From NCBI GenBank assembly GCA_015680905.1, contig CM027379.1, forward strand, positions 97,453,001 through 97,517,000: 64,000 nt of DNA, in the 5' to 3' direction. How positions within the stretch are numbered: the first letter of the stretch is position 1; each line of letters opens with the position of its first letter. This document shows positions 13,201-62,629 of the stretch, piece by piece. The notes beneath the pieces are model-generated. The model was not told the origin of the DNA. It did no database searches and saw only the letters and a list, made by a program, of their open reading frames with translations. Made by a program: the position numbers and the translations under genes. The DNA is from Coptis chinensis. Lineage: Eukaryota; Streptophyta; Magnoliopsida; Ranunculales; Ranunculaceae.

Positions 13201-13769
13201 CCCCGTGACTCATCCGCTTTAATTGGGCTTCATTGTTCCTCATGGGATATAATATCTCCTTTGCATGTGGGTCTTTCTTAGCTTTCGAGTTCCTCAAATC
13301 TGGCGGCGAAAGCAAATGCGATATGTGTATTTCCTAAGAGCGGTTCGCATTACTCAAGGCCTCTGAAGGCTACACTTGCCTTTCTATTCATTCTGCTCAT
13401 GCCGTGGAAGAACGTGACACATCGAGCCGATGCCCGAGGCTTCATTTCAGTGCCTTGTCTCTTTGAACTAACAGAGCAAGGTCTTCGATCTCTCCCCGAT
13501 GTCCATCTCGGAAGCGAGAATCAAGGAACGCCAAAGATCCCGAGAGCTCTATGGTAATACATCATGCCTCTTACAAGACGAGCAATGTCGGTCTCGTGAT
13601 GATGCCCGAAGCGGAGATCTTTTAGCTTGTTATTCCCTATTTCATTTTCATACACCATGCCCCTCTGCAAGATCCTCTCTAAGAAATTTATCCACTCATC
13701 ATCGTCAATTTTCTGCCGATAGAGCGATTAATTGTAGAGACACCATCTTCACTCTCGGCCAAGTAAATG

Positions 13770-22669: not shown

Positions 22670-23010
22670 CACTACTAAAAAAAAGAGGTTGTTATCTCGG
22701 TTCTAAAATTAGCCTTATCTCGGTTATGCTGATAAGCGAGATAATATGTCCTATAAATGAGATAATATGTCCCATAACTTAGGTACTAACTCTAAGTATA
22801 AATATTTTATCTCGTCTCTTACTTAACCGAGATAAAATATATGGATTTTACCACTGGTGGTGTGAAACTGATATAATAGGAAATCTCGTTTATCTCACCA
22901 TTGTGGAACTGATATAATAGGAAATTTAATTTTATCTCGCATTGAACTGATATAATTGATATTATACCAAATATCTCGGCACTCAAATGATATAATTGCT
23001 ATTATATCAA
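22670..23010. repeat. Left subterminal region of the outer CACTA element
   Basis: Terminal CACTACTAAAAAAAA followed by at least eight copies of TATCTCGG/CCGAGATA-type octamers and GATATAAT blocks over about 340 bp. Confidence 0.8.
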
Positions 23011-23285
23011 ATATCTCGGAATAAATTTGGCAAAGAAAATAGAAAGGGACACACGCGATAGATAAGGAAGTCCCGCTCTACAGGACTCTCTCATGACTAG
23101 CACGAACTCACGATGGCAATCGCCGTTGTATTCCTAACTATCTCGCCTCTCCACTCTCTCTTTGTCTATATTGCCCAACTCCACAGCAGTTCCACTACCC
23201 ATTTCAACTCGCACCAACTTAGAAATGATTTCCACTATCCATTTCAACTCCACAGCAGTTCAACAACTCTTCTCTCTCTAATCTA

Positions 23286-23835
23286 GTAACTACTGACCTG
23301 CGCAATATGAACACATTAGCAAAGGTGTGCATATTTCAGCCTATGTATTTCTCGCCAAGATTGACAGATTGGGACTTTCCGATTTGTCCAAGTATTTTAT
23401 TTTTTCATAGAAATCACGCACACTATATTCATTCAGATTATGAGGCACAGACGTATTGAGAGAGGAGCTTTAACGCTTGCTTCTGTAGAACTCAAATTTC
23501 AGATTGACACAGAAACTCATGATCCTCTTGATATTGGTATGTGACTTCAGTATAGTGATAAACCACTGAGCTGCACGACTTTATTTTCCCAAACAAATGC
23601 TTATGATCTATCACAATATTGAAGGAAGCTTGTTGGGATAACAACAATTTTGCCATCAACATGCTTGGTATTTAGTGAAATATTGTGTTTTTGTCTTTGT
23701 CTTATATGCCGGTGTTTATGCAGGAATGTATCAAATTAGAGAGGCAAACCAAATGATTGAGGAGTTTATGTTAGCTGCTAATGTTTCGGTTGCCGAAAAA
23801 ATCTTAAAGCATTTTCCTTTGTTCTCGATATTAAG
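23286..23835 (+). pseudogene. RRP44A: Captured RRP44A/DIS3 exosome nuclease gene, upstream exons
   Basis: Three exons with intact borders: about 23286-23324 (VTTDLRNMNTLAK, donor GTGTGC), 23437-23536 (IMRHRRIERGALTLAS, then ELKFQIDTETHDPLDI, donor GTATGTG) and 23724-23835 (MYQIREANQMIEEFMLAANV, then SVAEKILKHFP, donor GTATATC). This is the RNB nuclease domain of plant RRP44A, the active 3'-5' RNase of the nuclear exosome. The last exon ends in phase AG, and the next matching exon starts 12.8 kb away at 36642 with ACGCC, which completes Arg in RHPSPTKEMLEPLL. The 5' half of the gene is absent, so this is a captured piece, not the functional locus. Confidence 0.85.
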
Positions 23836-24124
23836 GTATATCTTTGGTTTTGAACCCCATACTCATGGATGTGGTTACTTGTTTGTTCTTATGTTCCTTC
23901 ACATCTCTTTCATTGGAAAGGTTCTCTACCATGATGGCCATATACTTCCATGCTCGTAGAGTGTATGGTTTTCATTTGTTGAAGCCACAAATATGTTGCA
24001 CCTTCAACCGATTATTCTTGCCACGGTGTCATAATTGAGTAGTTTCTTTGTTGTGATAGTTCAAGTTCTATTCTTGACCGGCTACAATGTGTATGGTTAA
24101 TTGGTTACAATTATGAAACACTAA

Positions 24125-24440
24125 CACCCGACACGAGCATATTCTAAAAAAGTAGGACGTGGACATTGCAAGGACACAAATATGAGATAATATTTGAAAA
24201 TTTATTTTATATTGATGTAAGATTAGATTTTAAGTCTTATCATAATAAAGATTCAACATTCATAAACATAGGACCAATAAAAAGGAGTCATAAAGACATC
24301 TCACATAACTATATAAGTCATGTCCGCGTCCACGCCGTGTCCAAACTACCCTAGCACGTGGGACACGCATGTTCCGTGTTGGACATGTGTCCAAGCCGCG
24401 TCCGTGTCCACGTCCGACATTGACACAGTGGAATTCTAGA
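24125..24440. repeat. Anonymous repeat with GTGTCC/GGACAC-rich segment, copy A
   Basis: Contains ACACCCGACACGAGC at its left and a block with several GTGTCC and CCGTGTCC motifs at 24320-24440. A related arrangement (GTGTCGGACACTCC) lies at 53625-53805. Probably an old short transposon, family unknown. Confidence 0.4.
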
Positions 24441-25199
24441 GGTGTCCGTGCTTTGGCATTCATGGTTGATCATCTACACCCAACGTAAAGGTAAAAAAAT
24501 TTAAGTATAATCCACCAAAGAAAATTTGGTAAAGGAATCTTGATGACAAGCTTATGGAGTGCTACTCTTATTTCTTATAACCTTTGTGCCTGCTCTTCTT
24601 TGGGTCGAGAAACACTCATTTCTATCCATCAAATCTGTATTAAACGCCACAAATGGATATAATGGATCATTTCTCCTCGTAATTAGACTCCAAACTGGAG
24701 AGGTCCGGACCTCCCAGTCCATACTTGGTCTTCGTGAAAATGCTTGAGTATGCAAAGACCAATTGCCTATTCCGCTTCTATGAGTGGACTTGAGCTGTTA
24801 TTAAACATATTAATACTTGTATATCCAATTCAAAAGAATGTTAACATATCCTGCTTTTTTCTCTCTGATTGGAGCATCTCACTACACCATTTGGGCTAAT
24901 TTGCAACCAATGAGAATTTTCATTAGTAACACATATACATCCGTTAGGTAATTTAAAACATTTAAAATCCGTTAGCAATACAAGTATCCGTTGGTAATAT
25001 TATGTAACATTTCTTTTTTAATGTTTTGTGACGCGTTTGCTCATGTGTTCTGAGTTAGGAAAGAAAAAGGAAAAATCACTTTGTTAAAAAAGAAAAAATA
25101 AATCACGTTGAAAAAAAAGAAGAAACTTAAGCGGGAGTTTTTTTATGTTCTCGCGCTCATCTAAATGCCAAACCCAACCCAAATTAAAATAGAATTATA

Positions 25200-28100
25200 G
25201 AAGTCAAAGAAAAAAGAAAACAGGTGTGTTGTGGCTAGGGTTTCCATCGATTTCCTCACTAGGTAAGTCGTCCGACTTCTCTTCCCCCCTCCTTTTCTTC
25301 TTGTTCATCTTCTCTTCCTCCCTTTCCAATAAACTGTCTAGGGTTTTGATTTCAGATTTACTAAAGTAAAAATTGATCTATGTTCTTAAGTTATCAAATC
25401 ATCTTAAATATCAAAGGAGCAGTCGTTGATTTTGTCACCAAGGGTAACTCAAAGTTTGGGTAATAAGCTATATAATTTTGTTTTCTTGTTTATGATTCAA
25501 GTGTGTTCTTTTGAGGTTTCTTGCATTTAAACTTGAGTTGTTGAAGAAGAGTCTAGCATTGGTGGAAGGTGTCTATGATTTATTTGATAAAATTCCAGAA
25601 AGAATTTCTGAACATGGAAGTTGCGGTTGAATTGTCTTGATAAGATAACTAACGTTTGAATGAAGTGGCATTGGGGTAGCCACTTGAAGCTCCAATAGAA
25701 CCTGATGCTGATGAACTCGGAGTTGATAATGCTAACTCAGAAATTGGAATAGAAGACTGATGGCCCTCAATCTCTATCTTATTCCCAGGTTTTTATTTTA
25801 GTCTTTCACTTTATCAGTGAAATGTAATAACGTTATGTTATGATATACCTATTTGAATATGACCGTGTGAACATTAATTGCAGGAAGAAATGGAGGCTTC
25901 TCTTTTCAGCTCTACAAAGTTTGGCTAGTCATGTAAGCGTTTAAGTTTCTTTTGTATATATCTCAGACTCAAGTATAAAATAGCGCCTTCTATACCAGGG
26001 AAGTTCCCTGACACTTATAAGCATCATGTACTTAGTTTTAAGTGTACTCTTGAACTGTTGTGCATTCGCCCTTTTCAGCAATTTAATTTGCTAACCATTT
26101 TATCTTGTCTACTCTAAACTATGTATTTCTTTTGTTTCTTATATGCTCCTTTGTTGGATACTTGGATGTAGAGAGGATCAAGCAGATTATGAGTGGAATC
26201 CAGGTATCTTACAAAACAAAGTCAATGTTATTCTTTTTATGGTTTTAGTTAATTCCATGCATTGGCAAACCCAATGCTTTACAAGTGTAAATTAAGAAAA
26301 TGAACTTTCTATGTTGGTACCAGTCTGATGTAATTTTAGTGTTGGTATGCTTGTCTTGATGTAATGGCGTTAACTACTTATTAATAAGGATAAGAAATGG
26401 TCTTCTTTGTTGTTTGAAGTCACATGTGCGTAGATATTAAATTATAATTTAAGATAGAGAACATGGTTTTAATGTGGATTAAGGGACACTAGTACATAAT
26501 AGGCCTTTTGTGACTGTTTTGAAAGAGTTTTTGTCACCTTTGTATCCTAGACCGTCACAAAAGTTTTTGACATACTTTTGTGATGTTTATTTTAAAGAAT
26601 ACATGTGTGGATGACTGGATGGAACATTGTGTGACATTTCCACTGAAACTGTTATGAATACCTTGCGTTTATGTGATTGTTTTGATTATTTCTATCCTTG
26701 CACACACTCAATTAGTTAAAAAAACTAACTCACAAACAAAAAGCCCGCATTCCATATATGTTTCACAGGTAATTGCTCTTGTGTGGCTCTATCTCTCCCA
26801 CAACTCTATCTCCCTCTTCACTTGTGCTGCTAGGGTTTCCAAGTTTAAAAATACCTGTAGGGATTATTTGCTCTTAGCTCTCCCATGAATCTCTCTTCTT
26901 CACTCAAAATTGGCGTTGAAGTAGTACCAGTAGCTCTTTGAAAATAAGATATTGTAATTGGTAAAAGAATCTAAACATACGAGGTTAGTTGATTGTCTTC
27001 TTCCTTTTTGCAATTGAGTGAATTCCTTTTTCAGGAACAAGCGAGATACGCACTCTCTCCCCAATTGCAGGAACAATCGTCTCACGCAAGGTATAGTTTT
27101 TCATTTAATTTGTTGTTTGCATTTATTTCTTCAGTACAATTTAAACTGTTAAACTCAAATTTTGTGCGATTATTTCGTGGCTTGGTATTTTTCATATTAT
27201 CTACTTGTTTTGAGGGTTAAAGTTTTTGTTGATTTTGTTGTTAGAAAGATAGAAAATTTTAATTCACCAACATGAATATTACCGAAATTTTATTGAGTAA
27301 TTGAATTATTATGAACAAGGAGCAAAACTGTTTTTAGGAATATGGTTCCCGTGCATTAATTTCATATAGACGAACACAGAGTATTTGAGGAAGTGTGAAA
27401 CAAAAAACTTTAGGTGTTAGAAACACAATATTTTTTTTAACAATGCCGAACATATAAGGTAATAGGCTAAAAGCTGAACTTGTTGTCAAGCGAATTTGAT
27501 TAATTAGCTGTATTTTAAATATTAAGGACTGCCATGGCTTGTTTAATGCTTAAGCCTGAGGTTAAGGTGCAACATGGTTCCGTCGTGGGTAAACGCTAAT
27601 TGGTAAACACTATTTACTGAGCCGTCGACCGTGTCTATTTTTTACTCTATTCCGTTGATGATTATACTTGAATGTGATAACTGTTTTTGTTGTTCTTGCA
27701 TGAGAGCATTGAGTATTTGAGTGTGTATGATTAATGTGTTTTTACAGTGACCAGTAGATTTCATAGTAGAACAGCAAGTCTGCTTATATAAGTTAATAGA
27801 AGGACAAGGGCAGTGTTGGTGCTAGTTAAGCAAGGGTCATGTCTTGTTTTCCCCTTACATTTCTTTTGGGATGTTCGGACCTTGATATATAGTGGTCTTG
27901 TTTGTTTTTCTTTTGCCTAGCGGATAGTATGGACGATATGGTTGGCGACACGAGTTAAATCTTTTTGATTTTGAACTAACATTTGACTTTTTAATCTTCG
28001 TTTGCTATTTTGTTACTGTTATAGAACTTATTGAATAAGGATATTCTTTTAACAATAATCTAATCAAGGGGGTGAGGCATCAAAGTGGTAGAAGATCCTA

Positions 28101-28820
28101 GAGAACTCTGTTCAAATTGCTTGTGTTGACTTGTTGAAGCTTTATTTTGTTACTTTTGTTTAGTCCTTTGGAATTATTTGATGTTGTTTACTCTGTACAG
28201 TAAAGCTTGCTTTAATTTCTTAAGATTCAAACTAGAATCCTCTAAACACTTAAACTGTAACCTGTTGGTTAATGAATGATTCAATGCTTTTTTAGGACAT
28301 ATAGTCTATAGAATACTTTGATTATTTTCTCTTTAGTAACGACCCTCCTTAGTCTATTGTAACTTTAGTACTTATTCAAACTTCAGTGTTTGTTTTCCTT
28401 CAAGAGCTTCAACATACTTTCTTCCAATTGGTTTCCAAATGACGCTTCTATTCTTTGTGGATGTGGAATAAGTGCAGGTCTCATTTCCAATGTCTTAACT
28501 AATATGCGGAATTTTGTCCAGTGCATTAAATAATATGGTGGATGTTATTCAAACTGATTTCTTAGTGGTAGTCTTAATTCATTGGTTAATAGTTATTATA
28601 GCTGATTCAAATAGGGGGTTGTAAATATGATTGAAGAAGACACACCTACTACTCGTGTTGAAATAGCCTTGAGGGTGTTCCGAGAATGCTAGCTACTTGT
28701 ACAGCAGTCTGCTCAGGGGATGCACTGATTTTGAGCACATTTTTTATCTTAGTTGGAGTTGGATTTGGCCAGGACAACCTACATAGGATAGATAGTACTT
28801 TGTCTGTTTTCTAATTAATG
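25200..28820. other. Interior of the nested CACTA element without named genes
   Basis: Gene-like texture is present (5'-UTR-like GCTAGGGTTTCC at 25230-25330 and 26830, TC-rich leaders, T-rich intron-like stretches, splice-like AG/GT borders near 25890 and 27030), but no protein family can be read. An unassigned block reads PIEPDADELGVDNANSE near 25700. These may be leader exons of further captured genes. Confidence 0.35.
26487..26660. mobile_element. Orphan CACTA-like terminus
   Basis: CACTAGTACATAATAGGCC followed by repeated TTTTGTGAC/GTCACAAAA motifs looks like the start of a third CACTA family. No matching right end was found in the window, so only a fragment may remain. Confidence 0.45.
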
Positions 28821-28821
28821 A

Positions 28822-28990
28822 GCCCAAATTCATTGCATTCAGAGATCTGACCACATCTCGCCAAGGACATGGCTTCTTTGGAGGCATCGAGGCCATTCAC
28901 ACCTTGGGTGGAAATGTTTGTTTTTATGAAAGTGCAAACGCAGGCCGGTCTTTCACATCGCATTCATTTGCCAAAGCTGTATGTTAAGCT
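28822..28990 (+). other. Unidentified exon-like fragment in the nested CACTA element
   Basis: One frame reads RQGHGFFGGIEAIHTLGGN, then VCFYESANAGRSF and TSHSFAKAV, with protein-like composition, and stops after about 50 residues. A second frame stays open from 28869 to 29126. I cannot say which frame was used or name the family. Confidence 0.35.
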
Positions 28991-29186
28991 CCATGGGATC
29001 CCATTTGATGTCGCAAAATTTGCTTCTCGCCTCGGGGAGATATATATATTATCATCCCGATACGGGGTTTTTAAGGAGAACTTCACGGGAATGGAAGGGA
29101 TAGATAAAAGAATTCATTATTGTTAATGTGTATGGTGTGTTGTTTCCTTTGAAATATATTGATGAACAAGCATTTGTTTCCTTTAG

Positions 29187-29647
29187 AGAATCGCAATAGC
29201 ATATCTGTTGGCTGCATTATGTGAGATTTGGCTCAAGCGCATGCGATGTCGTTAAATCAGAAATGTCATTCTTTGAAGAATTACCAATTTTAGTGGTAAG
29301 TTTCACATGTATTGCTTTGGTAAGTTTCACATGTATTGCGTTAACAATATTGTTCTCTTCAGTTATGATTTTGCTTTTTATCGCAAGAAGACTCTCTGCT
29401 TATTTCACTGTTGTGCACATGGCTCTATTGTATGGTTTGTTTGTCCCTGATTGGGAATACCAACTTCCAAGTGAAGGCACTTCTGTTGCAACAAGGACCT
29501 TCACTGTAGGTTCAACACTCTTTGTATAAATATTTAACTTGATTTCCAGAACTTCAGGTCTGGCCTTTGTCTGAAATCTGTAGCTAATGAGTTGTATATA
29601 TTCTTATTTCCATCTGAAGGTGAAATGTGGAGTAAGGGGAGACACTA
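29187..29647 (+). pseudogene. Captured HGSNAT-like acetyltransferase gene piece
   Basis: Exon starting after TTTAG at 29187 reads RIAIAYLLAALCEIWLKR. A second piece ending at 29508 (donor GTAGGT) reads MALLYGLFVPDWEYQLPSEG and ATRTFT, and a third from 29620 reads VKCGVRGDT. These are successive parts of plant proteins annotated as heparan-alpha-glucosaminide N-acetyltransferase-like, multi-pass membrane proteins. Introns are kept, so DNA rather than mRNA was captured. Only about 80 residues of a protein of roughly 400-500 are present; the first piece loses the family match after about 20 residues, so it is not functional. Confidence 0.78.
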
Positions 29648-30720
29648 AACAATTACTTTTAACATCAAGGACTAGAATGATAAAAGTAGAAAGTAGAAAC
29701 TGAGTTGTCAACTGGTGTTAGTTTCATTACCTCTTGGACTCACTAAACGGACAGTAAACGTCGATCCTTCTTCCATCAAATGGCATGTTTGAAAAATAAA
29801 TGCATTCGTCGTATAATTGCACTTGAATTATCATTTCTTACTTAGGCTATGTTTTTAGTCACCGGAGTTGTGTTGTAAACTTCTAGAACAGTGGTGGTCC
29901 TCTACTATATGATAGCCGCTCTCTTTCGTTTCTATTTGAAGGTGCTTTGGTGCTAAAGTTACATATGTTCTAACTTTCATTCTCAATAGGAATGGGAGCA
30001 GTTCATTGGGTTGTAATGTCTAAGGGAGCTCTATTGATGATCATTCCTCACTTTCAACTATATCACGCCTCCACTCCAAATACCTCGTGTCTTCTCTCCA
30101 CTCTCAAGGTACGTTCCTACACTCCTACTTTTTTTCTTTTTCTTCTCCAGCCTCTCTCCACTCTCTTTTTATGTTCTTCACTTCACTTCTCTCCCACTTT
30201 TTTTTTTCTTCTTTTCCTGTCTCTCTCCACTCTCTTCTTCAGTTTTGCTTGGTAAATGAAATAGAGTATGGCCTGCAGTGGCTGGAAATAGAGAAGTCAA
30301 AAAGGAATGGCCTGCAGTTACCTGTCAGGTAGTACAACCTACATAGAATAGATAGTACATACTTTATGTCTGTTTTTTCCTTATGTATCAAACTCTATTT
30401 CTTTTTACCTATCTACCTTAGTTTAGTCTTCTAAGTCCTCTGTTTTTGTAATTTGGATCATTCGTCTTTTTTAGGTCCAAGATGATAGATTATTATGTGC
30501 TAAGATTATGTGTTGAATCTTATTTTTCATCAGGATGTTATAGAGTTCCAAATGAATTTCTTTAAGAGTACAACTAAGCTCAATCTCAAGCATCAAAATA
30601 TGGCTCAATCAAATTTCTCTGCTTCATACAGAATAACAACACTCTATTGGTCCAATACCAATTAGATTCCAAAAGCTCAACAACAAACGCAGAGCCTTCC
30701 AGAGATCTAGCTTAGCTCAT

Positions 30721-30790
30721 CACTACTAAAAAAAGGTATTTTTATATCGGTTATGAAATTGCTGCTCTATCGGTTTTGTGCAAATGTCTT
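30721..30790. mobile_element. Orphan CACTA-like terminus
   Basis: CACTACTAAAAAAAGGTATT followed by ATATCGGTTATG and CTATCGGTTTTG, close to the ends of the outer CACTA element. No partner in inverted orientation was found nearby. It lies upstream of the SnRK1 exons and may mark the former left edge of the piece that brought them. Confidence 0.45.
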
Positions 30791-31550
30791 TTTTTGTTGA
30801 TTTGATAGACTGATTTCTAATGATGCCTTGAATTTGGTTAGGGGTTTATGCTAAGATGCAGCACCGTGTTTCGTGTGAGGTTCACTCACATGTTGAGAGT
30901 TCGTTCTAGGACTAACAGAGATTTAGGCATAGTACATTTATTAATATGAAATTTTGTTAGTAACTTTTTCTTGGTTGATTGGTATGCATCTGAATTTGGC
31001 TTGTTATAGTTTGTTGTAGCTGAAAAAATGAATGGTATGATCATTTGTTTGAATGCAATTAATTGATCTTTGATATGCTAATACTCATCGCTAGTTTTGG
31101 ATGGATATCTGCGAATTCGCTTTTGTTTCCAGGGTGTTGATTTAATGTTTGGAATTTTTGTTTAAGCTTGTCTTATGTTCACTAAGTTCTTCGGTGCGAC
31201 TTGTTATGACACATATAAGTTGTTGTAGAGCATTGTAGCATAAGCTTCCATATATTGTTTTGAAGTTTTATCCTATATATTTTAGAAATGTCAATTGTGA
31301 CTGTAAAGTATGTAATAGTGTACTCTGACGACTATCTGTTAAATTTATCAAATACTGAAATCATTCTTAGTATTTGAAAATCTCATTTGGATTTTGTTTT
31401 ACTCAAACCCAATCACTGAGAAGTTTTCATAAATTTTGCTGGATGGCTTATGTAGTGGTCCACTGATAGATCTGATTGTGTTGTTTACCTTTGTTTGAGT
31501 CAATCACGGTAATCGATGTTATTTTTTTGCCGCAATTTATGTAATTTCAG

Positions 31551-31798
31551 ATTGACGAAGACATTCTCCTCGAAGTGATTAAGATGGGATTTGACAGGAG
31601 TCAATTAACTGAATCTCTTTGCAGCAGAGTACAAAATGAGGTACTATCTGATGTTTCATGGCGATCTTGATATTTTTTCCACTTCATTGGTGTAATTTGT
31701 TGAAACCTTTTCAGGCCACCATTGCATATTATTTGCTTATGGATAACCGTTTCCGAGCTACCAGCGGCTATCTTGGAGCTGAGTTTCAGGAGTCAATG
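31551..31798 (+). pseudogene. Captured SnRK1 alpha (KIN10/KIN11-type) kinase gene piece, UBA region
   Basis: Two exons with good borders. 31551-31640 reads IDEDILLEVIKMGFDRSQLT then ESLCSRVQNE (donor GTACTA). 31715-31798, after TTTTCAG, reads ATIAYYLLMDNRFRATSGYL then GAEFQESM (donor GTGTG). This is the ubiquitin-associated domain and following linker of the catalytic subunit of SnRK1, the plant energy-sensing kinase. The kinase domain and the KA1 end are absent. The two exons themselves are open and show no damage, so the capture may be fairly recent, but the piece cannot encode a kinase. Confidence 0.85.
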
Positions 31799-32929
31799 GT
31801 GTGTTTTTTTCTCAATGTATAGTTTTCTTTTATCATTTTGTAGTCCTTTGCTTATTTTATATACTAGTGGGTGGGGATAATTCGCCAATAAGCATTAGCC
31901 ATGGTATAGATTTCAATGGCACAATAGTAATATAAGAGCAGATAGTAGTAGTATTAGAATATCAGCAAATAGTAGTAGTAATTAAATCACTAATCCCTAA
32001 GCTCAAAGTCTCACTATTGCCCAAACCCCTTAAGTTCCAGAGGGTTAACTTAAATAACACTAGAAAATAGTTTGTTAGTTTATTGTTAAAGTAATCTACT
32101 GAATAGACATATTGTTCATGTGTTCCATTTTTTTTTTCCTTCCAGGTGGTATTCAAGCTTTTCCATGGTGGAACGAATATGCAAAGCTTTCATGCAGCGG
32201 AGTCATTTATGCAGCTCTGTTATTGTTTCTTTGCTTTAGTTTTAACTTTTTGTCGATGAAAATTGATAAACACTTTAACTAGAAACTTGGTTTTTGCTTA
32301 TTTGTTTAGTGTTGATAGATTAGGTGTAATGAGTTGTTCTGGTTGGCGTGGGCATTTAGAACATTTTGTTTTTCATTATGTTTCGTTGTGTGGATGAATG
32401 GAAGGAAGGAATTTAATTACTAGAGTTTGTTAAAGTTATAGATGAATAGAAAAACTTAAATGATACATTATGGAATAAAAAAAGGTGCAGGAACAGGTAC
32501 GTGCACCAATACTTTGCTGTTCATGGATTTTATTCGAAGGTTAACTATTTTGCTGTCAAACTTTTCATGGTTTCATTTGGGTGGTGTCTAGTCTTTGGAT
32601 TTTCTGTAGGTTTTTATGAAGTCTTTAGAGGTCAGTACAGGGTTTGACTCTTTGCTTGGCTCAAGTGTTGATCGATGTTGGCAACTTATTTAATATATTA
32701 TTGTTATGATAGTTGTATATTTTGGAATTTGCATTTGTGTATGTATGGATGTGGCGAAACAGATAAAGGTATATTACTTCTCAATAGAAATTGGATCTTG
32801 GTATATTACTTATTTGTGAATGAGCTATGTTAGAAATGCTGTGGTAGAGATTGTGATTGAGCAAATGCAGGTACGTGCAACATTACAGGTGGCCCCACAT
32901 AAAAGGGCTGAACAAACTAATTTTTTTTT

Positions 32930-33275
32930 ATACAATGAAAATTCATTAGTAACGGATAGAAAACCGTTAGCAATTGAAAATTAGTAACGGTTTTCAAATG
33001 TTAGAAAGGGGATATTACTAACACTTTATCAGTTGCAAACAAATTATGTACAAAATTAATAACCGTTACTAATAAATTGTAACGGTTTTTATGCGTTGTT
33101 GAAATTAATTTAAGTAACACTTGTTAACCGTTAGTAAAATTTCTAACGGATATTAAGCGTGACTAATATCTGTTACTATTATTTGTCACGCTTTTGTGTC
33201 AACGCAAGATAACCGTTACTAATATTTTTTGTAACGGATGTGTATCCGTTACTAATAGACTGTTTTGGTGTAGTG
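32930..33275. repeat. Right subterminal region of the nested CACTA element
   Basis: About ten copies of GTAACGG/CCGTTAC-type motifs in both orientations, ending in TGGTGTAGTG, the inverted copy of the left terminus CACTACACCA. Confidence 0.85.
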
Positions 33276-33305
33276 TCTTCAATAAGTTATTCTTGGTTAA
33301 GTAGT

Positions 33306-33652
33306 TGTTACAACCCAATCCCTGTTACTGTCACTATTCACTAGTTCTTAAAGCACTATTCCCCCTCTCCTCTCTGTTGGTCGCTCTCCTCTCTATTCTT
33401 AGGTTTTCCCTCGTATCTTAATGAATCCTCCCCCCTTTTTCCTCTCTTCCTCTTTCTCTTTATATATGTTTCTTCCTCCATCCAGGCCCTCCACCTGTCC
33501 CTCCATCTCGCGGTCTCCTTCTCTCCGTGTGTAGGGTTTCCGTACTGCAGCCATGTGCCTTAGCTCTGATCCTATACGCCGCGGCTAAATACCTTTCGTC
33601 GACTCAGGCGCATCCTCCCTTTGATATTTCGGGCCCCCATACTACCACTACA
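33306..33652 (-). repeat. LTR of the Tat-type Gypsy element
   Basis: In plus-strand reading starts TGTTACAACCCAATCCC and ends ATACTACCACTACA. Length is close to the 331-337 bp LTRs of the element at 9864-16412. Confidence 0.8.
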
Positions 33653-36625
33653 GATGCCCCCTCTCGAGTCCGCGACCATTTGGTGATCGGGTAGTCGAGA
33701 GTCCACCATGTCACGTGTTCTATCCGCGGCCCCAAAAATTCTCTTTCACCGCTGGACTCACGAGTCCCCTCGCAATTATAACTTGTGCCCCTCGATTTCC
33801 TTGTGCATCCACGCGACACGCGATGGATCGATCCTTTTGGTGTCACCTCGATTTCAGCCCCCCTCCGATTACTCTTTTGCCCCTTCCTCTTATAAAAAGC
33901 CCACTCAATTCTTTCTCTCCTCCATTCAGTCTTTCATTTTCTTCCCAGTTGCTCTCTCCCTCTCTCTCTACTCTTCCTCTTGGTTAACTACTCGGTCCGC
34001 CTGGCCTGTCCTTCCCTGTTTTCTTTTGTCGAGGTTTTGTTCATTTGCTTCCCCCTTCCCTCAGGTTGGTTACCACAATCACTGCATGGGCTTCGAAATA
34101 GGGCTTCAGCTTCAGGGCAGAGAACACCAAGGCAAAGGCGTACTTCTCTACTCGGCTGTACCTAGTCTCCGCATCTAACAAGGTCTTGCTCTGGAAGTAC
34201 ACTGGTCTTTCTACTTTATCCACTACCCGGACGAGGACCGAGCTGATAGCATAATCTGTGACACCCAGGTACAAAAATAACTTTTCTCCCACTTTGGGCC
34301 GCGACAACAGCAGTGTTTCCTCTAGATACCTTTTAAGCCCCTGGAATGCCTCTTCGCGACTACATTTGTCCATTTGAAACGTGGTGTTCCTCAACAGCCG
34401 CATATGCTGCCTACATTTGTCGGATGACTTTGAGATGAATCTGTTGAGAGCCGCGACTCTACCCGCCAACCCATTTGCACCTCCTTTCATGCGTGGTGAC
34501 GGCATCTCCACCAGTGATCTTATCTGTTCGGGGTTCGCCTCTATTCCCCGCTGTGTCACAATGTACCCCAGAAATTTCCCCGTGGTGACTCCAAATGTGC
34601 ATTTCTCTGGGTTGAGTTTCAAATTATGGACCCGCAGTATCTGGAACGTCTCCTTCAACCCCTCTAGGTGCTCTGGTTCTGACATGCTTTTCTCCACCAT
34701 ATCATCGATGTATATCTCAATGCCCCTTCGGATTTTGCCCTCAAACATTTTCTCCCCCAATCGCTGGAAAGTAGCCCCTGCATTCTTCAACCCAAATGGC
34801 ATCCTCGTATAGCAGTATGTGCCTCCTTCCACAACGAATGAGGTCTTCTCCTGATCAGGTCCATACATCGCAACCTGGTTGTACCCCATGGACGCATCCA
34901 TAAATGAGAATATACTGAATCCCGCCGTCCTGTCTACCAATTCGTCCACTTGCGGCATAGGATAACTGTCCTTCGGACACTCCGTGTTTACGCCCCCGGA
35001 AGTCAACACACATTCGCACCTTCCCATTTTTTTCTTTGGAACCGCTGACTATATTGGGATGACCATTCCGTGAACTCCACCTCTCTTATGATCCCTACAC
35101 TCTTTAGCCTGGCAACCTCTTCCCGGATTCCTTCTGCGTATTTAGTTCTCATTCCCCTCATCTTCTGTCTCACTGGCTTCGCGTCCTCCCTCATATGTAA
35201 GCGATGACATGTGAATTCCGGATCTAAACCTGTGACATCCTCTATCCCCCAAGCAAATACGTCCTTGTTCTCCACCAAACATTGCACCAACTTATCTTTC
35301 CATTCACCCATCAGCCTTGACCCAATCGACGTCAACTTCTCCTCTCCGCCCTCTCCCAGGTTCACTATTTCTGTTTCATCTAAAGTCTTCGGAACCATCG
35401 CGGCCTCTTCCGCCCCTTCCACGGCCCCGCACTGTAATTGCTATGCCGGCCTCTTCCTAGGGTTCACCGGTCCACATCCCGGCCCGTGGGACATCCTCTT
35501 AATTGTGTTCTGGTGACTGTTCTTGGAGGCCACCTGATCTCCGCGGACCTCGTATGTTCCCGTAGGGGTAGGGAAGCGTATGACTTGATAATAGGTCGAG
35601 GGTACCGCTCTCATCTCATGTATCCATCTCCTCCCCAGGATCGCGTTGTATTGGGAATGGGAGTCGACCACCATAAATCTTGAGAACACCGTCACCGGAC
35701 CCATTGTTACCGGCAGCAGAAGTTCACCCATAGGCTCCGTGACGCTCCCATTGAATCCATACAAACTGGTCCGCGGGGGTCTCAGTTGCCCCGGGTCGAT
35801 CCCCATCTCCTCAAGAGCTCCTTGAACAAAGAAATCCACGGGTACGCCACAGTCAATCAGGACTCTTTTGACCACATAATTACCCATTGCTACCGTAATG
35901 ACTAGCGCATCCTCATGTGGAGTATCCACGGTTCGGAGATCTGCACTGGAGAATGCAATCCTCTCTTCCCCGCTCGTTAGCTCCGTGCCGTATCTCTGCC
36001 CTCGGTGGGACTCATTGACTTGCTGAATGCTCGCTGTCCTCCTGACCTTATCCCGGTGGGCATTGTGACTCAGTGCTTCCCCACTGAAGATAACATTTAT
36101 GGTTCCCAATATTCTTCCTGCAGTGGGCACCGACTCCCTATTTTGTGGTTCCGTTACAAATTCCCTCATCACTCCCTTCTCTACTAATCTCTGAACCAAC
36201 CATTTTAAGGCATAGCAATCGTTTGTTTCATGATTGTGCACCTGATGATACTCGCAGTATGGCTTGTTAGGCATTTCGGCAGGAAAGGTTCGCGACCCTT
36301 CATATCCCGGCACGTTTTTTATCAACGGCAGTATCTCACTCAACGGTCTCGCCAAGGGCACCTGTTCCACCTCGCGGTATGGCTTTTTCTCCCTCTGCTC
36401 CCTGCGCACCATTTCTCTTCCCCTCCCCGGCCGTGATGACTAACCGCGGTACCTCTCCCCACCTCTGTCTTCTCCCTCTGTCTTTCTGCGCTCCCTTCCT
36501 TTTTCTACCTTTGTAACTGCCTTGGCTCCCCTCTTTGAGTCCTTCTGCATAGTGTCCTCATATCTAATATACTTCTCTACCCGCGGATATAGCTCATGCA
36601 GTGTTGCAATCTCATTCATCAATGA
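33306..36625 (-). mobile_element. Broken Ty3/Gypsy element, Tat-type
   Basis: On the minus strand: gag C-terminal part and aspartic protease region (about 36600-35441; gag block HELYPRVEKYIRYEDTMQK, protease-type VLIDCGVPVDFF) and reverse transcriptase (about 35422-34041; GLDPEFTCHRLHMREDAKPV, RMPFGLKNAGATFQRL, IYIDDMVEKS, start of the RNase H region SKTLLDAETRYSRVEKYAF). One LTR is seen (33306-33652, preceded in element sense by the purine tract GAGAGGGGGCATC). The opposite LTR is not found, and the sequence passes directly into an intron end of the captured RRP44A at about 36630. It is a broken fossil. Its LTR start and purine tract resemble those of the element at 9864-16412. Confidence 0.88.
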
Positions 36626-36641
36626 CTGCTTACTAGTGCAG

Positions 36642-38407
36642 ACGCCATCCCAGTCCAACGAAAGAGATGCTTGAACCTTTACTGGACGGATTTCTTTGCG
36701 GTTGGTGCGGATTTGGATGTTTCATCTTCAAAAGCTCGGCTGATTCACTTGATCGTGCGGTGGTAAGATCCATTGTTCTATTGCCTGCTGATAGCATTCA
36801 CATGCTTAAGGGTGGCTTCATGTTTGGTCATGCTATACTTCTTTTATAACATCTGAACTTTGTATATTAAATGAAATAGGTTTTCAATTAACTGGGGAAA
36901 GTGTGGTAAATTATAATATTTAGGTTTTGTTCATTTCTAGATATATATTTTTTAATTAAAAGGATTTACTTGAGAAGTAAAAATCTATGGTAGGGTGATG
37001 ATCCATACTTTAATAAGCTGATTCGTATATTGGCGACTAGGTGCATGACACAGTTATTACTGGCTTATGAACTACTGTGTGTATTATATGTATAATTCTA
37101 CATGACTAAGCTGATATTTTATACTTCCAGGCAGTTTACTTCTGTAGTGGAGATCTCACGCCTCCAGAATTTCACAATTATGGTCTTGCATCACCTCTCT
37201 ATACCCATTTTACTTCCCCTCCCTTTTAACACATGTGTCTTACTTTACTTAAATTTAACAAGTAATCTTGGTACTCTATATTCCTACAGATGTCATTGTG
37301 CACAGGCTGCTTGCCGCAACTTTGGGAATTTACAAGCTTCCACCAATATTTCAAGACAGACCCCAACTTACCAGTATTTCTAACAGTAAGAATCTTTTAT
37401 GCTATGCTACTTACATAAATGGACAAAAGAAAATTAGAGCTGGTTGGAACATTACTGTAATTCCATTTCTTTTATAGTATTAAGATGAAGATAGCTGCAC
37501 ACTTTGATGAGATGTGTTAATTTCGATGAAATTTCGTTCTTTGACTACGACTCTTGAATGTTCTTTCTTACTGATCAAAGAGATATTATGTTTCCTTAGT
37601 TTTACAGCTCATCTCTCGCAGGGTCCATTCTTTGTATTTTCATAAAGAAGCTAGTTTATCTTCTTCTTGCAAATTTTATTTTGTGGTTCAATTTGGTGTG
37701 GTTATCTATTTTCAGATTTGAATTATAGGCATAGAAATGCCCAAATGGCTAGTCGGGCCTCAGTTGAGCTGCATACACTCATTTACTTTAGGAAAAGGTA
37801 CCCCCCTCCCCAACATGCACACACACACCACCTCTCTCTCTCGTTTATAGCAACTATTTTCTCATGCAGGCCAACAGACACTGAAACAAGAATAGTAAAG
37901 ATAAGAGCCAATGGTTTTATTGTCTTTGTGCCCAAGTAAGCTATCTAATTTTTGCCTCTCTTGGTTTTCTTTTTCTCATTGAATTGTTGTCTGTGAACTA
38001 CGGCACATAATAAGTCCATACCACAATCATTTTATTTCACAATTCACATCATCATTTATGGATACTTTGTATTATTGGGTGTAATTGTTTTTCCAGAATC
38101 ATCTGTAAACCTACTTTTAAAAAATGAAATAAAAATGAGAATAGTTAAAGTTATAGCTCCCAACTAGTTTTCTCTAGTTTGCGTCTCTTTGCAGAAACCA
38201 AAAGTGGTGTCTGGATTCTTTTGCCATTTTTTCAGGTATGGTATTGAAGGCCCTGTGTACTTAACACCTAGAGGAGAAAAAGGAGGGGACTGGTTCGTAG
38301 ACGAGGAGCATTAGAAGGTCAAGAAGATGGATGGAAGCATCAGTTACAATGTTCTACAGATGGTTAGAATTCACATGGAGGTTGTGGAACCCCATCCGGC
38401 AATCGAG
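36642..38407 (+). pseudogene. RRP44A: Captured RRP44A/DIS3 exosome nuclease gene, downstream exons
   Basis: Exons in order: 36642-36762 (RHPSPTKEMLEPLL ... ADLDVSSSKA ... ADSLDRAV), 36994-37053 (GDDPYFNKLIRILATRCMTQ), 37131-about 37220 ([30 protein letters not shown]), 37290-37385 (VIVHRLLAATLGIYKLPPIF, QDRPQLTSIS), 37716-37797 (LNYRHRNAQMASRASVELHT), 37870-37935 (PTDTETRIVKIRANGFIVFV) and 38236-38407 (YGIEGPVYLTPRGEKGGDWF, MDGSISYNVLQMVRIHMEVV). These are the end of the RNB domain and the S1-like end of RRP44A. Damage: two compensating frame changes in the first exon (the second a lost base near 36738), a donor reading TT at 37054, a missing RRY segment and lost donor at about 37220, and an in-frame TAG in the last exon (EEH, stop, KVKKMDG). 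The piece stops just short of the family's C-terminus. Not functional. Confidence 0.9.
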
Positions 38408-39305
38408 GTACTCTCCTCTCTCTAATAATTCACTTATACTTCACTTAACAACTAACAAGTAACCTCTATTGATATATATCCAAAAAGAAAAAAGGTCTGG
38501 TCTCTTCATGGGATAACGTTCTGTTTCTTCTAATCACTCATTGAAACATTTTCATTACATCTTTTGAATTATACTGAAAATGCAAGTATTAGCTTGCAAC
38601 TCTTTTTTACATATCTAGCAGCTCCCTAGACAGTTGAGTCGGAGAGAAGTGTTCTTGGATGGAGTTTCTTCATTTTTTCTCACAAAGACACTAATGTTTG
38701 CCATCAACCCATCTATGTTCAAAGGTTAGTTTCTTTCTAGTTTCTTCAATATTCTATGTTCTTTTCCAACTATCTTGGTATTAAGCTATATTCACCAATG
38801 TTTCACTGGTACTTTTAATGTAGTGGTTGTTTTTATTTTGTTATTAGGAAGACTTATTTGGACTTGATGCCCTGCTGATTTTTGTAAAAATGTGAATTAA
38901 CTTCCCACAAGTCTATTGATCATACGTTATGTACATAAGTATGTATGTTTAGTGCCTGTATATCGGCACGAGATTTGTCTACAAGGTTTTTAGTTTTTAC
39001 CAAGTGAATGTATAGTTCGTATGTCCTTTCCACTTTGCTGTAGATCGACAATTAACTGTCCTTAAGAATTAATTTATGCCTATAATGACTTCTAGGCCGG
39101 TCAGGGAACATAGTAAAGATGTACATGCGTGGGGTTTTAGCACAAACCTCACTTATGTTGTACCATATTATATATATGTCCTTTCCTTAAATGTTGATAA
39201 AAACTATTCAAATCAAAAAATTGTTGGCTTTTTATTGGATTGGATTATGATATGTCATCTTTAGTGCCATTAATTTATGTGTTCTATTTATCGGGTTGCT
39301 TCTAG
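38408..39305. other. Junction between two captured genes
   Basis: Intron-like T-rich DNA. A piece at about 38620-38725 reads LSRREVFLDGVSSFFLTKTL then MFAINPSMFKG and is followed by a GT, so it may be an exon of an unrecognised gene. The rest holds nothing I can name. Confidence 0.35.
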
Positions 39306-39598
39306 GGGATGTCACTTGTTTGGCCACTGTTCCAATTGATATGAAAGTAGAAGCACATTTCTTCATCAAGGAGGACAACATCATTGCTAGAATTTCTCTT
39401 GCAGAGATGGTATTTAACGAGGTCGATCCTTCATTGGAGGTGTGTAGGGAGTCTTTTCTGCAATTCCTATCTCTATTATATTTATTTTAAATGCACAAAA
39501 GTGTCTATTTATTAACAACATTTTTCGCTCTTAGGTTGAGTGCTTTAAGAAAGATGGAGATTTTGTAAGTAAAGGGACACAGTTTGCCAAAGTATCTG
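39306..39598 (+). pseudogene. Captured quinolinate phosphoribosyltransferase (QPT) gene piece
   Basis: Exon 39306-39439 reads [40 protein letters not shown] and DPSLE (donor GTGTGT). Exon 39535-39598 reads VECFKKDGDFVSKGTQFAKV SG (donor GTAAGG). This is the N-terminal domain of nicotinate-nucleotide pyrophosphorylase, the plastid enzyme that feeds quinolinate into NAD synthesis. The catalytic barrel and the rest of the gene are missing. The two exons are open and the splice sites are intact. It follows the RRP44A piece on the same strand within the outer CACTA element. Confidence 0.85.
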
Positions 39599-39714
39599 GT
39601 AAGGTCACTGTTGCAACATTTTTATACTTGTTCAACCCTTCCTTTTTTTGCCCTTCTTCTTTTGTTTATATTCTCTCTTATTGTGTGGTTATATTGCTTA
39701 GAAGTAACTTCTAA

Positions 39715-40215
39715 GCAATGTGAGGACCCTACATCTATCCTACCAGAGCTTTATTAGGGTGAGATAGCTTCCAGTGACACACATAGTAATTATGTCCTTG
39801 AGCAATCAAATAATTCTGTTCAAGTAGGGGCCTCCACTAAAGATGCACCTTAAGTTGAGTCCTCGGTTGCCAAGCATGGAGATATTCTTATTGACATCAA
39901 TGACCGATTCCCTCGGGATTTCTTGTCAGATATATTTTCAAAGGAAAGATTGACTGAAGAGTCCTCTAGTATAAGTCTGTTGTACAGTGATGGAACTGGA
40001 TTGAGCATAAACATTGGTCATTCTTTCAGAAGTTAGCATTGGATGAGTTAGTTAGAAATGATGTTTCTCTTATGGATTAGGATCATCTTGGATATTCGTC
40101 TCCACTTACAAGTTGACGAAGAGAGTCTTGGAGCCTATAATTTTTCACAGCTGACAACCGACGTGAATACTTTGGGACCTGTGGATTCTCAAATTTTTTT
40201 TGAGTAGGAAATTCA
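39715..40215 (+). pseudogene. Captured PB1-domain Raf-like protein kinase gene piece
   Basis: Reads SNYVLEQSNNSVQVGAST, then HGDILIDINDRFPRDFLSDI, FSKERLTEESSSISLLYSDG, TGLSINIGHSF, and in other frames LALDELVRNDVSLMDQDHLG and LTTDVNTLGPVDSQIFF. This is the linker just before the kinase domain of plant PB1-containing Raf-like MAPKKK-type kinases. No PB1 or kinase domain is included. In-frame stops and at least two frame changes are present. No intron is seen in this part, which is one exon in the family as far as I recall. Confidence 0.72.
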
Positions 40216-40619
40216 ACAGGAACCATCTGTAAGGAGGAAATTTAGCAGGAACCATCTGTCTCCTTTCATGAATATATAGAGAAAGGTTAAAAAAAAATGT
40301 CTTATTATAGTTCGAAGAATAGTAGTTAATACAATATTTGAGTTTCTATATATAATTGATTGATCACTAATACTCTTTGAAAGTTAAGTTCATGTTCGAC
40401 ATTGTTCTTTCTTAATTATCTTAATGAAATAAGTTCTTCAAAGAATGTATTTATGTTGGGTTTCTTTTGTTAATTGGTGTTGATATTTATGAATATGAGA
40501 GGGAATGTGGTGGTTTGGGATAGGTTTTTATTTGTTGGTTAATTAATTGTCATGAGCAATACCAGCAAAAAATGACAAGGGTGAGATAAAAGGTTGTCCA
40601 ACAATCTCCATTTCCAAAA

Positions 40620-40941
40620 GAATTTATCACAGTTATTTTTTGATATTATCTCGGTTTCAATAAAAAAAAACATCTCAGTTTTCTTCTATACTAATTGGTT
40701 TCAATCAACAATTCATCTCGGTTTTATTCTAAATAATATTAGTTTTATTTAGAAAATCGAGATAATATATTTAGATAAGATCTCAGACTTCTGAGATAAT
40801 TTAGTAGCTTATTATCTCGGTTTTATAGAACTCTATTATCTCAGTGGATATTACCTCGGTTTGTTTTTCATAGAAAACCGAGGTAAAAACTCTAACATCT
40901 CACTTTTTAGTTGAGCTTATAAGCCTTTTTTTTTAGTAGTG
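40620..40941. repeat. Right subterminal region of the outer CACTA element
   Basis: Many TATCTCGG/CCGAGGTA-type motifs in both orientations, ending with CCTTTTTTTTTAGTAGTG, the inverted partner of the left terminus at 22670. Confidence 0.85.
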
Positions 40942-41572: not shown

Positions 41573-41640
<68 letters not shown>

Positions 41641-42231
41641 AAAAAAAAAATTAAAGAGAGACGGAGAGAGAGATGAGCGGCTAACCTTCTAACCTTGAGA
41701 GAGAGTGAGTGAGAGAAGCGAAATAGTTGCAACTAGGGTTAGGGTTGAATAAAATTATTTGCCGAATTTGCCGATGGCAAATTTTTTGTGATATCAAGCA
41801 CTGGTAAACCTGGCAAATGACATTTGCCAACACTTGCCTGTTCACGAAACAAGCAGCGGCAAAACTCGATTTTCTTGCTAGGTAGTTTGTCCGTAAATTT
41901 TTAAGTAGGAAAATGTTTTCCCATTACATATTTGCCCCTCAAGTGGAAAATTTTAACAAGCCCTTATAGTTATAGCTTGAAGGGACATAAGGGCAAAATC
42001 CATGGCCCAATGTCCATGTAAAATGAGTTGTTAAGACAGAATAAGGAAGAGAATGTAAGAAAATATCAATACAAACCTAACAAACCTCCAAAAATAAAAA
42101 CTAATGTATTATCAATGTCATAACTTCATAACTCACCGTCAAACAACACACCCAACACTCAAAATCGAACTATAAGTAATAGCTACACTCATTCCTTATT
42201 GTTCGTCCTATCAGTTTTCAGTTCTCTTACA
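41341..42231. other. Intergenic DNA with a TA microsatellite
   Basis: AT-rich with a TA run at about 41572-41635 followed by about 15 A. A TATAAGTA box-like sequence at about 42171-42178 lies 54 bp before the start codon of the next gene, which is close for a TATA box but possible. Confidence 0.5.
41572..41635. repeat. TA dinucleotide microsatellite
   Basis: About 30 uninterrupted TA units followed by an A run. Confidence 0.97.
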
Positions 42232-42576
42232 ATGGCTTGCAAACTGAAGTCTTCTCTCATTTCTTTCTTTCTTGTCCTTACCATTTTTCTTTCCATGACT
42301 CAGTTTATTTCTACAGCCCGCGAAATTCAATCCACCATGAATAAAAATGATAAGAGCAATCCTAATAAAGATGCCGCCTTAACCACTCAAACCCTTCCAG
42401 GTATTGGAGGACAATTTCCTACACCACACTTGGGAGGTGGGGAACATAGCATCAACCTACCTGGAAGTCATTACCATCAATACATTCCAGGTTTAGACGA
42501 TACTTTTGTCCAAAACCCAGGAACTGAAATCCCAAGTCCTCATGGCGGCCGCATTCCTGCTGCTACTCATCCTTGA
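42232..42576 (+). CDS. Small secreted cell-wall-type protein
   Basis: 114 residues if translation starts at the ATG in TTACAATGGCT, which fits the plant consensus better than the in-frame ATG 33 bases upstream (42199). Residues 1-30 form a signal peptide with the hydrophobic core LISFFLVLTIFLSMTQFI, probably cut near ISTA-RE. The mature part is rich in Pro, Gly and His: TLPGIGGQFPTPHLGGG, SHYHQYIPGLDDTFVQNPG and TEIPSPHGG. The 'PG-DDTFV-NPG-E-P' pattern resembles plant proteins labelled 'putative cell wall protein'; their biochemical role is not known to me. No intron, no damage. A TATA-like box lies at 42171-42178. It is probably an exported wall or apoplast protein. Family call is moderate; the reading frame is firm. 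Confidence 0.7.
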   Translation: MACKLKSSLISFFLVLTIFLSMTQFISTAREIQSTMNKNDKSNPNKDAALTTQTLPGIGGQFPTPHLGGGEHSINLPGSHYHQYIPGLDDTFVQNPGTEIPSPHGGRIPAATHP

Positions 42577-43544: not shown

Positions 43545-43746
43545 CTAGGATGTGAGTCCATAAAATTTACTAAACATATCTCGCACACTTCTAAACCTAG
43601 ACACTTCTTCTTCTCTTCTTACTAACGCCACTGTTCCTTAAGGACAGTCTTATCGACACCTGGGTTGTTCACTGTTGGTCTATTGTTCCTTCTGTTCTAC
43701 TCTAGCTGTTGTTTTCATACAACTATTCTAACAGCCAACACTTACG

Positions 43747-62406: not shown

Positions 62407-62629
62407 GCATTCCCTTTATCGCAAGCAAAAAGGCAAACGAACATAGGTTAGTAGTTGCTATTGTTGCGTTCATCACTTGATGATATAGTAGGGCTGTTAC
62501 CTTTTGTATGTTTCGGAGCCATATCAATATTGTCCCTAAGTTTCGATTTCACAACTTCTGAAACCCATTTTGCAATTGCTTGATGTTGTGAACATATTCC
62601 TTAGTATGTAGCTCGCTTCACGCTTTTAA

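What the first reader, a model, noticed from the sequence alone, without database searches (positions are those of the whole stretch)
22670..40941. An 18-kb CACTA transposon that has collected pieces of at least three unrelated host genes
Seen: inverted CACTACTAAAAAAAA ends, GGG target duplication, TATCTCGG subterminal repeats at both ends, and between them RRP44A, quinolinate phosphoribosyltransferase and PB1-Raf kinase pieces, all on the plus strand, the first two with introns and splice sites kept. Known: CACTA elements in soybean, rice and sorghum are reported to carry host gene pieces. Inferred: captured pieces in a row on one strand could be transcribed as chimeric RNA or make small RNAs against the parent genes (exosome, NAD synthesis, kinase signalling). 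No transposase is seen, so a partner element is needed for movement.
Basis: partly seen in the sequence, partly recalled or inferred. Interest (0 to 1): 0.85.

Follow-up and report, generated by a model that had tools for sequence, protein, structure and literature searches.

The report
Nested gene-carrying plant CACTA transposons
A plant jumping gene carries decayed pieces of host genes, and a second, different jumping gene with host-gene cargo of its own plus a broken retrotransposon sit inside one intron of that cargo; gene-carrying elements of this kind are already known in plants.

Summary
The ends are real: 22670-40941 has 13/13 terminal inverted repeats, GGG/GGG flanks and TATCTCGG-type repeats at both ends. 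But it is not one 18-kb element that collected everything between its ends. A second CACTA element of another family (24880-33275: ends CACTACACCA, flanks TCT/TCT, TAACGG/CCGTTA repeats) is nested inside, with a truncated Gypsy fragment (~33306-36630, minus strand) beside it. Both sit in one 12.8-kb intron (23836-36641) of the captured RRP44 piece; the exons on either side join in phase. Without these inserts the outer element is ~6.55 kb and carries RRP44, a QPRT piece and a PB1-Raf-like piece (last name recalled, no Pfam match). The nested element has its own cargo: an SnRK1/AMPK-alpha-type UBA piece (Pfam E ~1e-3, below cut-off) and, by recall only, an HGSNAT-like piece; it also holds two solo CACTA-like ends. 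No CACTA transposase family matched in six frames. RRP44 and PB1-Raf-like pieces are decayed; the QPRT and SnRK1 exon pairs are open. Best reading: a nested pair of non-autonomous, gene-carrying (Pack-type) CACTA elements, a new member of a known kind. Copies, parents, empty site, transcription and small RNA could not be tested.

The parts
22670..40941 (.). outer non-autonomous CACTA element (18,272 bp with inserts, about 6,553 bp without)
   Evidence: TIR 13/13, GGG/GGG, subterminal repeats at both ends; size arithmetic with an approximate Gypsy length
22670..23030 (+). outer left TIR and subterminal TATCTCGG repeats (8 at <=1 mismatch)
40580..40941 (-). outer right subterminal repeats (8 at <=1 mismatch) and TIR
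23437..23835 (+). RRP44 piece, first part: exons 23437-23536 and 23724-23835 (RNB domain)
23836..36641 (+). 12,806-bp intron of the captured RRP44 piece, holding the nested CACTA and the Gypsy fragment
   Evidence: exon e2 ends ...FPLFSILR, e3 goes on RHPSPTKEMLEPL in phase; GT...AG
24880..33275 (.). nested inner CACTA element (8,396 bp), TIR CACTACACCA, TSD TCT (24877-24879 and 33276-33278)
26487..26640 (+). solo CACTA-like left end of a third family (CACTAGTACATAA, five TTTTGTGAC-type repeats in 130 bp)
29187..29643 (+). HGSNAT-like (heparan-alpha-glucosaminide N-acetyltransferase-like) piece, frame broken; name recalled
   Evidence: translation; no match in Pfam or PDB
30721..30783 (+). solo CACTA left end resembling the outer element's left end
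   Evidence: gapped local alignment over about 60 bp
31551..31798 (+). SnRK1/AMPK-alpha-type UBA piece, exons 31551-31640 and 31715-31798, open frame
   Evidence: Pfam UBA_BRSK 7.1e-4, AMPK_alpha_AID 7.8e-4, UBA 3.3e-3, all below curated cut-off; splice sites and joined frame
33306..36630 (-). truncated Ty3/Gypsy fragment (reverse transcriptase, RNase H; a gag-like part and one LTR-like stretch by eye); borders approximate
   Evidence: RVT_1 2.1e-21, RT_RNaseH_2 3.4e-14; ORFs; no exact 12-mer repeat inside, so no second LTR seen
36642..38407 (+). RRP44 piece, second part: seven exons (RNB end, S1), TAG at 38312-38314, two donors not GT (after 37053 and about 37222)
39306..39598 (+). QPRT piece, exons 39306-39439 and 39535-39598, open frame
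39758..40277 (+). PB1-Raf-like kinase piece (by recall the region before the kinase domain), stops and a frame break; name recalled
   Evidence: translation; no Pfam match

Best explanation
The interval is two nested, non-autonomous, gene-carrying CACTA elements. The outer one (about 6.55 kb of its own) took in genomic DNA with introns from RRP44, QPRT and a PB1-Raf-like gene, all on one strand. Inside the long RRP44 intron lie a second CACTA element of another family, which carries host-gene DNA of its own, and a Gypsy fragment. Both CACTA elements would be moved by transposase made elsewhere, through their ends and subterminal repeats. Shown: ends, equal flanks, repeats, RRP44 and QPRT pieces, intron context, no transposase match. 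Inferred: mobility in trans; the order of events (inner CACTA and Gypsy after capture, or already in the parent intron); capture by the neighbouring-insertion route proposed for Pack-CACTA elements. The pieces most likely make no working protein; at most they can be spliced as cassette exons of a read-through RNA or feed small RNAs.
For:: of all CACTA...TAGTG pairs 200-30,000 bp apart in the window with equal 3-bp flanks, only two reach 10/13 or better: 22670-40941 (13/13) and 24880-33275 (10/13, the first 10 exact); 0 of 200 shuffles reach 13/13 with equal flanks; an exact 10-bp TIR plus equal flanks (800-30,000 bp apart) in 7 of 300 shuffles, against 2 pairs in the window; 16 TATCTCGG-type sites at the outer ends (about 0.5 expected), 12 TAACGG/CCGTTA at the inner ends (about 0.07 expected). 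RRP44 exons on either side of the inserts join in phase. RRP44 and QPRT. SnRK1/AMPK-alpha-type UBA, below cut-off; no CACTA transposase family in six frames at E <= 1.
Against: GGG is a weak target duplication beside a run of five G. The inner pair by TIR identity and equal flanks alone is not rare (88 of 200 shuffles hold some pair at 10/13 or better); it rests on the exact 10-bp match plus the repeats. The long-frame Pfam scan is not very sensitive: it missed the SnRK1 piece that the joined exons showed, so a decayed or intron-rich transposase remnant could be missed; it did find the Gypsy reverse transcriptase. No second copy and no empty site could be looked for. The two solo ends inside the inner element show that ends here can be truncated leftovers.
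Confidence: 0.85

Rival explanations
1. The outer ends come from two separate CACTA insertions of one family; the DNA between them never moved as a unit and the GGG match is chance.
For: GGG lies beside a run of G; the two terminal regions share the motif but align only in part; solo ends exist nearby (30721, 26487).
Against: One matched left and right end with 13/13 TIR and equal flanks, 0 of 200 shuffles; pieces of unrelated genes packed between them is the usual look of a gene-carrying CACTA.
Confidence: 0.1
2. The inner CACTA and the Gypsy fragment were already in the intron of the parent RRP44 gene and were captured together with it.
For: Both lie inside one RRP44 intron whose flanking exons join in phase.
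Against: Nothing direct; it needs a capture of about 15 kb in one piece.
Confidence: 0.25
3. The gene pieces are one ordinary segmental duplication and the CACTA ends are incidental.
For: Introns are kept and the pieces are on one strand.
Against: Pieces of unrelated genes lie within about 6.5 kb of outer DNA, and the pieces that I recognised stay inside the ends; the flanks were not searched for further pieces beyond ORFs of 150 codons or more and ten of these in Pfam.
Confidence: 0.03
4. The element is expressed as a chimeric gene whose protein or small RNA acts on the parent genes.
For: 13 of 13 acceptors and 11 of 13 donors are kept; QPRT and SnRK1 exon pairs are open; Tgm-Express1 makes chimeric spliced RNAs (PMC1947982, abstract).
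Against: RRP44 and PB1-Raf-like pieces hold stops and frame breaks, two donors are not GT; about 12 kb of inserts split the RRP44 piece.
Confidence: 0.1

Closest known systems
Tgm-Express1 of soybean (CACTA, wp allele)
   Same: CACTA element with several unrelated host-gene pieces with exons and introns; 5.7 kb, close to the outer element's own 6.55 kb (PMC1947982: outline with abstract, Background section and a term search seen)
   Different: here an intron of the cargo holds a second gene-carrying CACTA and a Gypsy fragment; genes differ; expression unknown
Pack-CACTA / Pack-TYPE elements
   Same: non-autonomous, captured host DNA between the ends; proposed capture by mobilisation of neighbouring insertions (PMC8903248: outline with abstract and that section; review PMC13317346: passages)
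   Different: here two families are nested; the solo ends inside the inner element belong to other families, which that model does not directly predict
CACTA elements with captured gene fragments in Chenopodium
   Same: captured host-gene fragments inside CACTA elements (PMC8978399: outline with abstract and one discussion section)
   Different: there the fragments are described upstream of the element's own coding region; no such coding region is found here
LsC1/LsC2 of lettuce
   Same: non-autonomous CACTA; LsC2 is a truncated copy, like the solo ends seen here (PMC8195511: passages)
   Different: insertions in an anthocyanin gene; sequences not compared with this window

Membership tests
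CACTA (En/Spm) superfamily, outer element | TIRs beginning CACTA | tested here: met
   13/13
CACTA (En/Spm) superfamily, outer element | 3-bp target site duplication | tested here: met
   GGG/GGG; weak because of a run of five G on the right
CACTA (En/Spm) superfamily, outer element | subterminal repeats in direct and inverted orientation | tested here: met
   8 + 8 sites, both orientations at each end
CACTA (En/Spm) superfamily, inner element | CACTA TIRs with 3-bp target site duplication | tested here: met
   first 10 bp exact, TCT/TCT; such a pair in 7 of 300 shuffles, any 10/13 pair with equal flanks in 88 of 200
CACTA (En/Spm) superfamily, inner element | subterminal repeats | tested here: met
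   2 + 10 TAACGG/CCGTTA, about 0.07 expected
autonomous CACTA | tnpD/tnpA-type transposase genes | tested here: not met
   no CACTA transposase family at E <= 1 in six frames of 22670-40941; no separate positive control was run, and short exons can be missed in such frames (against 28)
Pack-TYPE (gene-carrying) CACTA | host gene DNA captured between the ends | tested here: met
   outer: RRP44, QPRT; inner: SnRK1-type UBA below Pfam cut-off
Pack-TYPE (gene-carrying) CACTA | parent copies elsewhere in the genome | not testable with these tools
   no genome held
Pack-TYPE (gene-carrying) CACTA | mobility or several copies | not testable with these tools
   no genome held

The most novel reading that the evidence does not exclude
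Two-generation gene capture: an intron inside the cargo of one gene-carrying CACTA served as the landing place of another gene-carrying CACTA of a different family, so that pieces of four or five unrelated host genes (RRP44, QPRT, PB1-Raf-like, SnRK1-type, perhaps HGSNAT-like), all on one strand, can now move as one 18-kb unit and be spliced into each other.
Probability: 0.15. Interest if true: 0.5.

Novelty: new member of a known kind. Interest (0 to 1): 0.35.

Why it matters
It shows how a captured intron gives room for further insertions, so that a small gene-carrying element can grow into an 18-kb compound. If it moves as a unit, genes captured by two separate families would be shuffled together. 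It is also a caution that element sizes and cargo lists read from the outer ends alone can mix several elements.

Tried and rejected
A search of the window's own genome was impossible. A pairing of the solo end at 26487 with 31869 (12/13, flanks GGA/GGT) was rejected: flanks unequal, no TTTTGTGAC-type repeat near 31869, and that place lies just behind the SnRK1 exons. PDB search of the SnRK1 piece gave nothing at E <= 0.01 and 9 hits at E 0.1 to 1.1 with the limit at 10, 8 of the 9 kinases; Pfam gave 7e-4 to 1.2e-2, below its cut-offs. The HGSNAT-like piece matched nothing of use (where I had mixed frames wrongly). The PB1-Raf-like piece matched nothing in Pfam. Five other translated stretches, four from the inner element (two of them overlapping) and one from between RRP44 and QPRT, gave no Pfam match above cut-off (best DUF3094 at 0.11, proteins 3, 4, 8, 9, 10). 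One-strand orientation is not significant: 3 of 3 in the outer element has chance 1/4, and 5 of 5 with the two inner pieces 1/16 (own arithmetic). Paper searches for these genes with CACTA (2 papers listed) and for nested or chimeric gene-carrying CACTA elements (2 and 3 listed) showed, by title and start of abstract, no description of this arrangement; most subscription papers are not held, so this is no proof of absence. Catoni et al. 2019 is not held and is known here only through PMC8903248 and PMC13317346.

Full report
Observation. The ends at 22670 and 40941 are as described: 13/13 inverted repeats, GGG on both sides, TATCTCGG-type repeats at both ends. In 200 dinucleotide shuffles of the window no CACTA...TAGTG pair reached 13/13 with equal 3-bp flanks. 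TATCTCGG with at most one mismatch occurs 8 times in each terminal region of about 360 bp, against about 0.24 expected from the rest of the window. GGG alone is weak, since five G follow the right end.

A nested second element. The same scan gave one other pair at 10/13 or better with equal flanks: 24880-33275, ends CACTACACCA, flanks TCT/TCT. By TIR identity and flanks alone this is not rare (88 of 200 shuffles hold some pair at 10/13 or better). An exact 10-bp match with equal flanks, 800-30,000 bp apart, occurs in 7 of 300 shuffles, and TAACGG/CCGTTA occurs 2 and 10 times in the two terminal regions against 0.03 and 0.04 expected. I therefore take it as a real CACTA element of another family. 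To its right lies a Gypsy fragment on the minus strand, about 33306-36630, with reverse transcriptase (E 2.1e-21) and RNase H domains and open frames of 335 and 332 codons. Its borders are approximate; the gag-like and LTR-like parts are named by eye; no exact 12-mer repeat was found in it, so no second LTR is seen.

Where the inserts lie. RRP44 exons are found on both sides: 23437-23536 and 23724-23835 on the left, and seven exons from 36642 to 38407 on the right. The exon ending at 23835 and the one starting at 36642 join in phase (...FPLFSILR / RHPSPTKEMLEPL...) with GT and AG at the intron borders. The nested CACTA and the Gypsy fragment thus sit in one intron of 12,806 bp of a single captured RRP44 piece. 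The outer element without both is about 6,553 bp (with the approximate Gypsy length).

Cargo. RRP44/DIS3: 22 distinct PDB sequences at E <= 0.001, best 2.2e-61; Rrp44_S1 3.6e-8. QPRT: QRPTase_N 2.2e-10; PDB best 3e-5. In the inner element, 31551-31798 encodes an SnRK1/AMPK-alpha-type UBA piece (UBA_BRSK 7.1e-4 and AMPK_alpha_AID 7.8e-4, below the curated cut-offs; nothing in PDB at E <= 0.01; 0.1 or weaker with a lax limit); the name SnRK1 rests partly on recall. 29187-29643 resembles a plant HGSNAT-like protein by recall only (negative). The pieces are all on the plus strand, which at this number is not significant.

State of the cargo. Of 13 exons placed in RRP44, QPRT and SnRK1, 13 of 13 acceptors read AG and 11 of 13 donors GT; those after RRP44 exons 4 and 5 do not, and the end of exon 5 is approximate. 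RRP44 has a TAG in its last exon and, against recalled plant RRP44, a double frame break in its third exon. The PB1-Raf-like piece has stops and a frame break. The QPRT and SnRK1 exon pairs are open. A working protein from the whole is unlikely; cassette exons in a read-through RNA remain possible.

Solo ends. Inside the inner element lie two left-type CACTA ends without partners: 30721, alignable over about 60 bp with the outer left end, and 26487, followed by five TTTTGTGAC-type sites in 130 bp, of 25 in the whole window. Truncated CACTA copies are known, for example LsC2 of lettuce (PMC8195511, passages). They suggest that the inner element is itself a mosaic.

Transposase. No CACTA transposase family matched at E <= 1 in six frames of 22670-40941. 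This scan finds uninterrupted domains (the Gypsy reverse transcriptase) but missed the short SnRK1 exons, so a decayed, intron-split remnant is not excluded. Both elements would need a partner for movement; whether they still move is unknown.

Known relatives. Gene-carrying CACTA elements are well known: Tgm-Express1, 5.7 kb with pieces of five genes and chimeric spliced RNAs (PMC1947982, abstract and Background); Pack-TYPE elements with proposed capture by neighbouring insertions (PMC8903248, abstract and one section); Chenopodium CACTA elements with gene fragments (PMC8978399, abstract and one section). CACTA elements above 20 kb are mentioned in PMC4938662 (passages). The present case is a new member, nested. 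Paper searches listed no evident description of a gene-carrying CACTA nested in the cargo intron of another, judged by titles and abstract starts and within the limits of that library.

Limits. No genome is held for the window, so copy number, parents, dates, empty site and species are open.

Noticed in passing
window 43732-45837: Open frame of 701 codons with KIB1-4 beta-propeller (Pfam 8.6e-76, two stretches) and F-box matches below cut-off (8.5e-5); looks like two F-box/DUF295-type units in a row.
   Followed up: partly
window 42124-42576: Small secreted-looking open frame, by recall like a plant cell-wall protein; about 1.2 kb downstream of the outer element, same strand as its cargo (no Pfam match).
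   Followed up: partly
window 13494-13576: snoRNA snoJ33 on the minus strand (Rfam 46.4 bits, cut-off 45), close to a glucan (callose) synthase piece at 13752-14336 (Pfam 8.3e-14).
   Followed up: no
window 61270-62415: MULE transposase piece (Pfam 9.8e-18) and a SWIM zinc finger below cut-off (0.0023) on the minus strand.
   Followed up: no
window 18825-19427: Reverse transcriptase piece (RVT_1 6.2e-11) on the minus strand, by its look of a LINE.
   Followed up: no
window 12280-12706: Tandem array of a 91-bp unit, 4.7 copies, 91% matches.
   Followed up: no
window 41574-41635: (TA)31 microsatellite about 0.6 kb right of the outer element.
   Followed up: no
window 48612-49253 and 54922-55737: Copia-type retrotransposon coding stretches (RVT_2 5.4e-61 on the minus strand and 1e-32 on the plus strand).
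   Followed up: no
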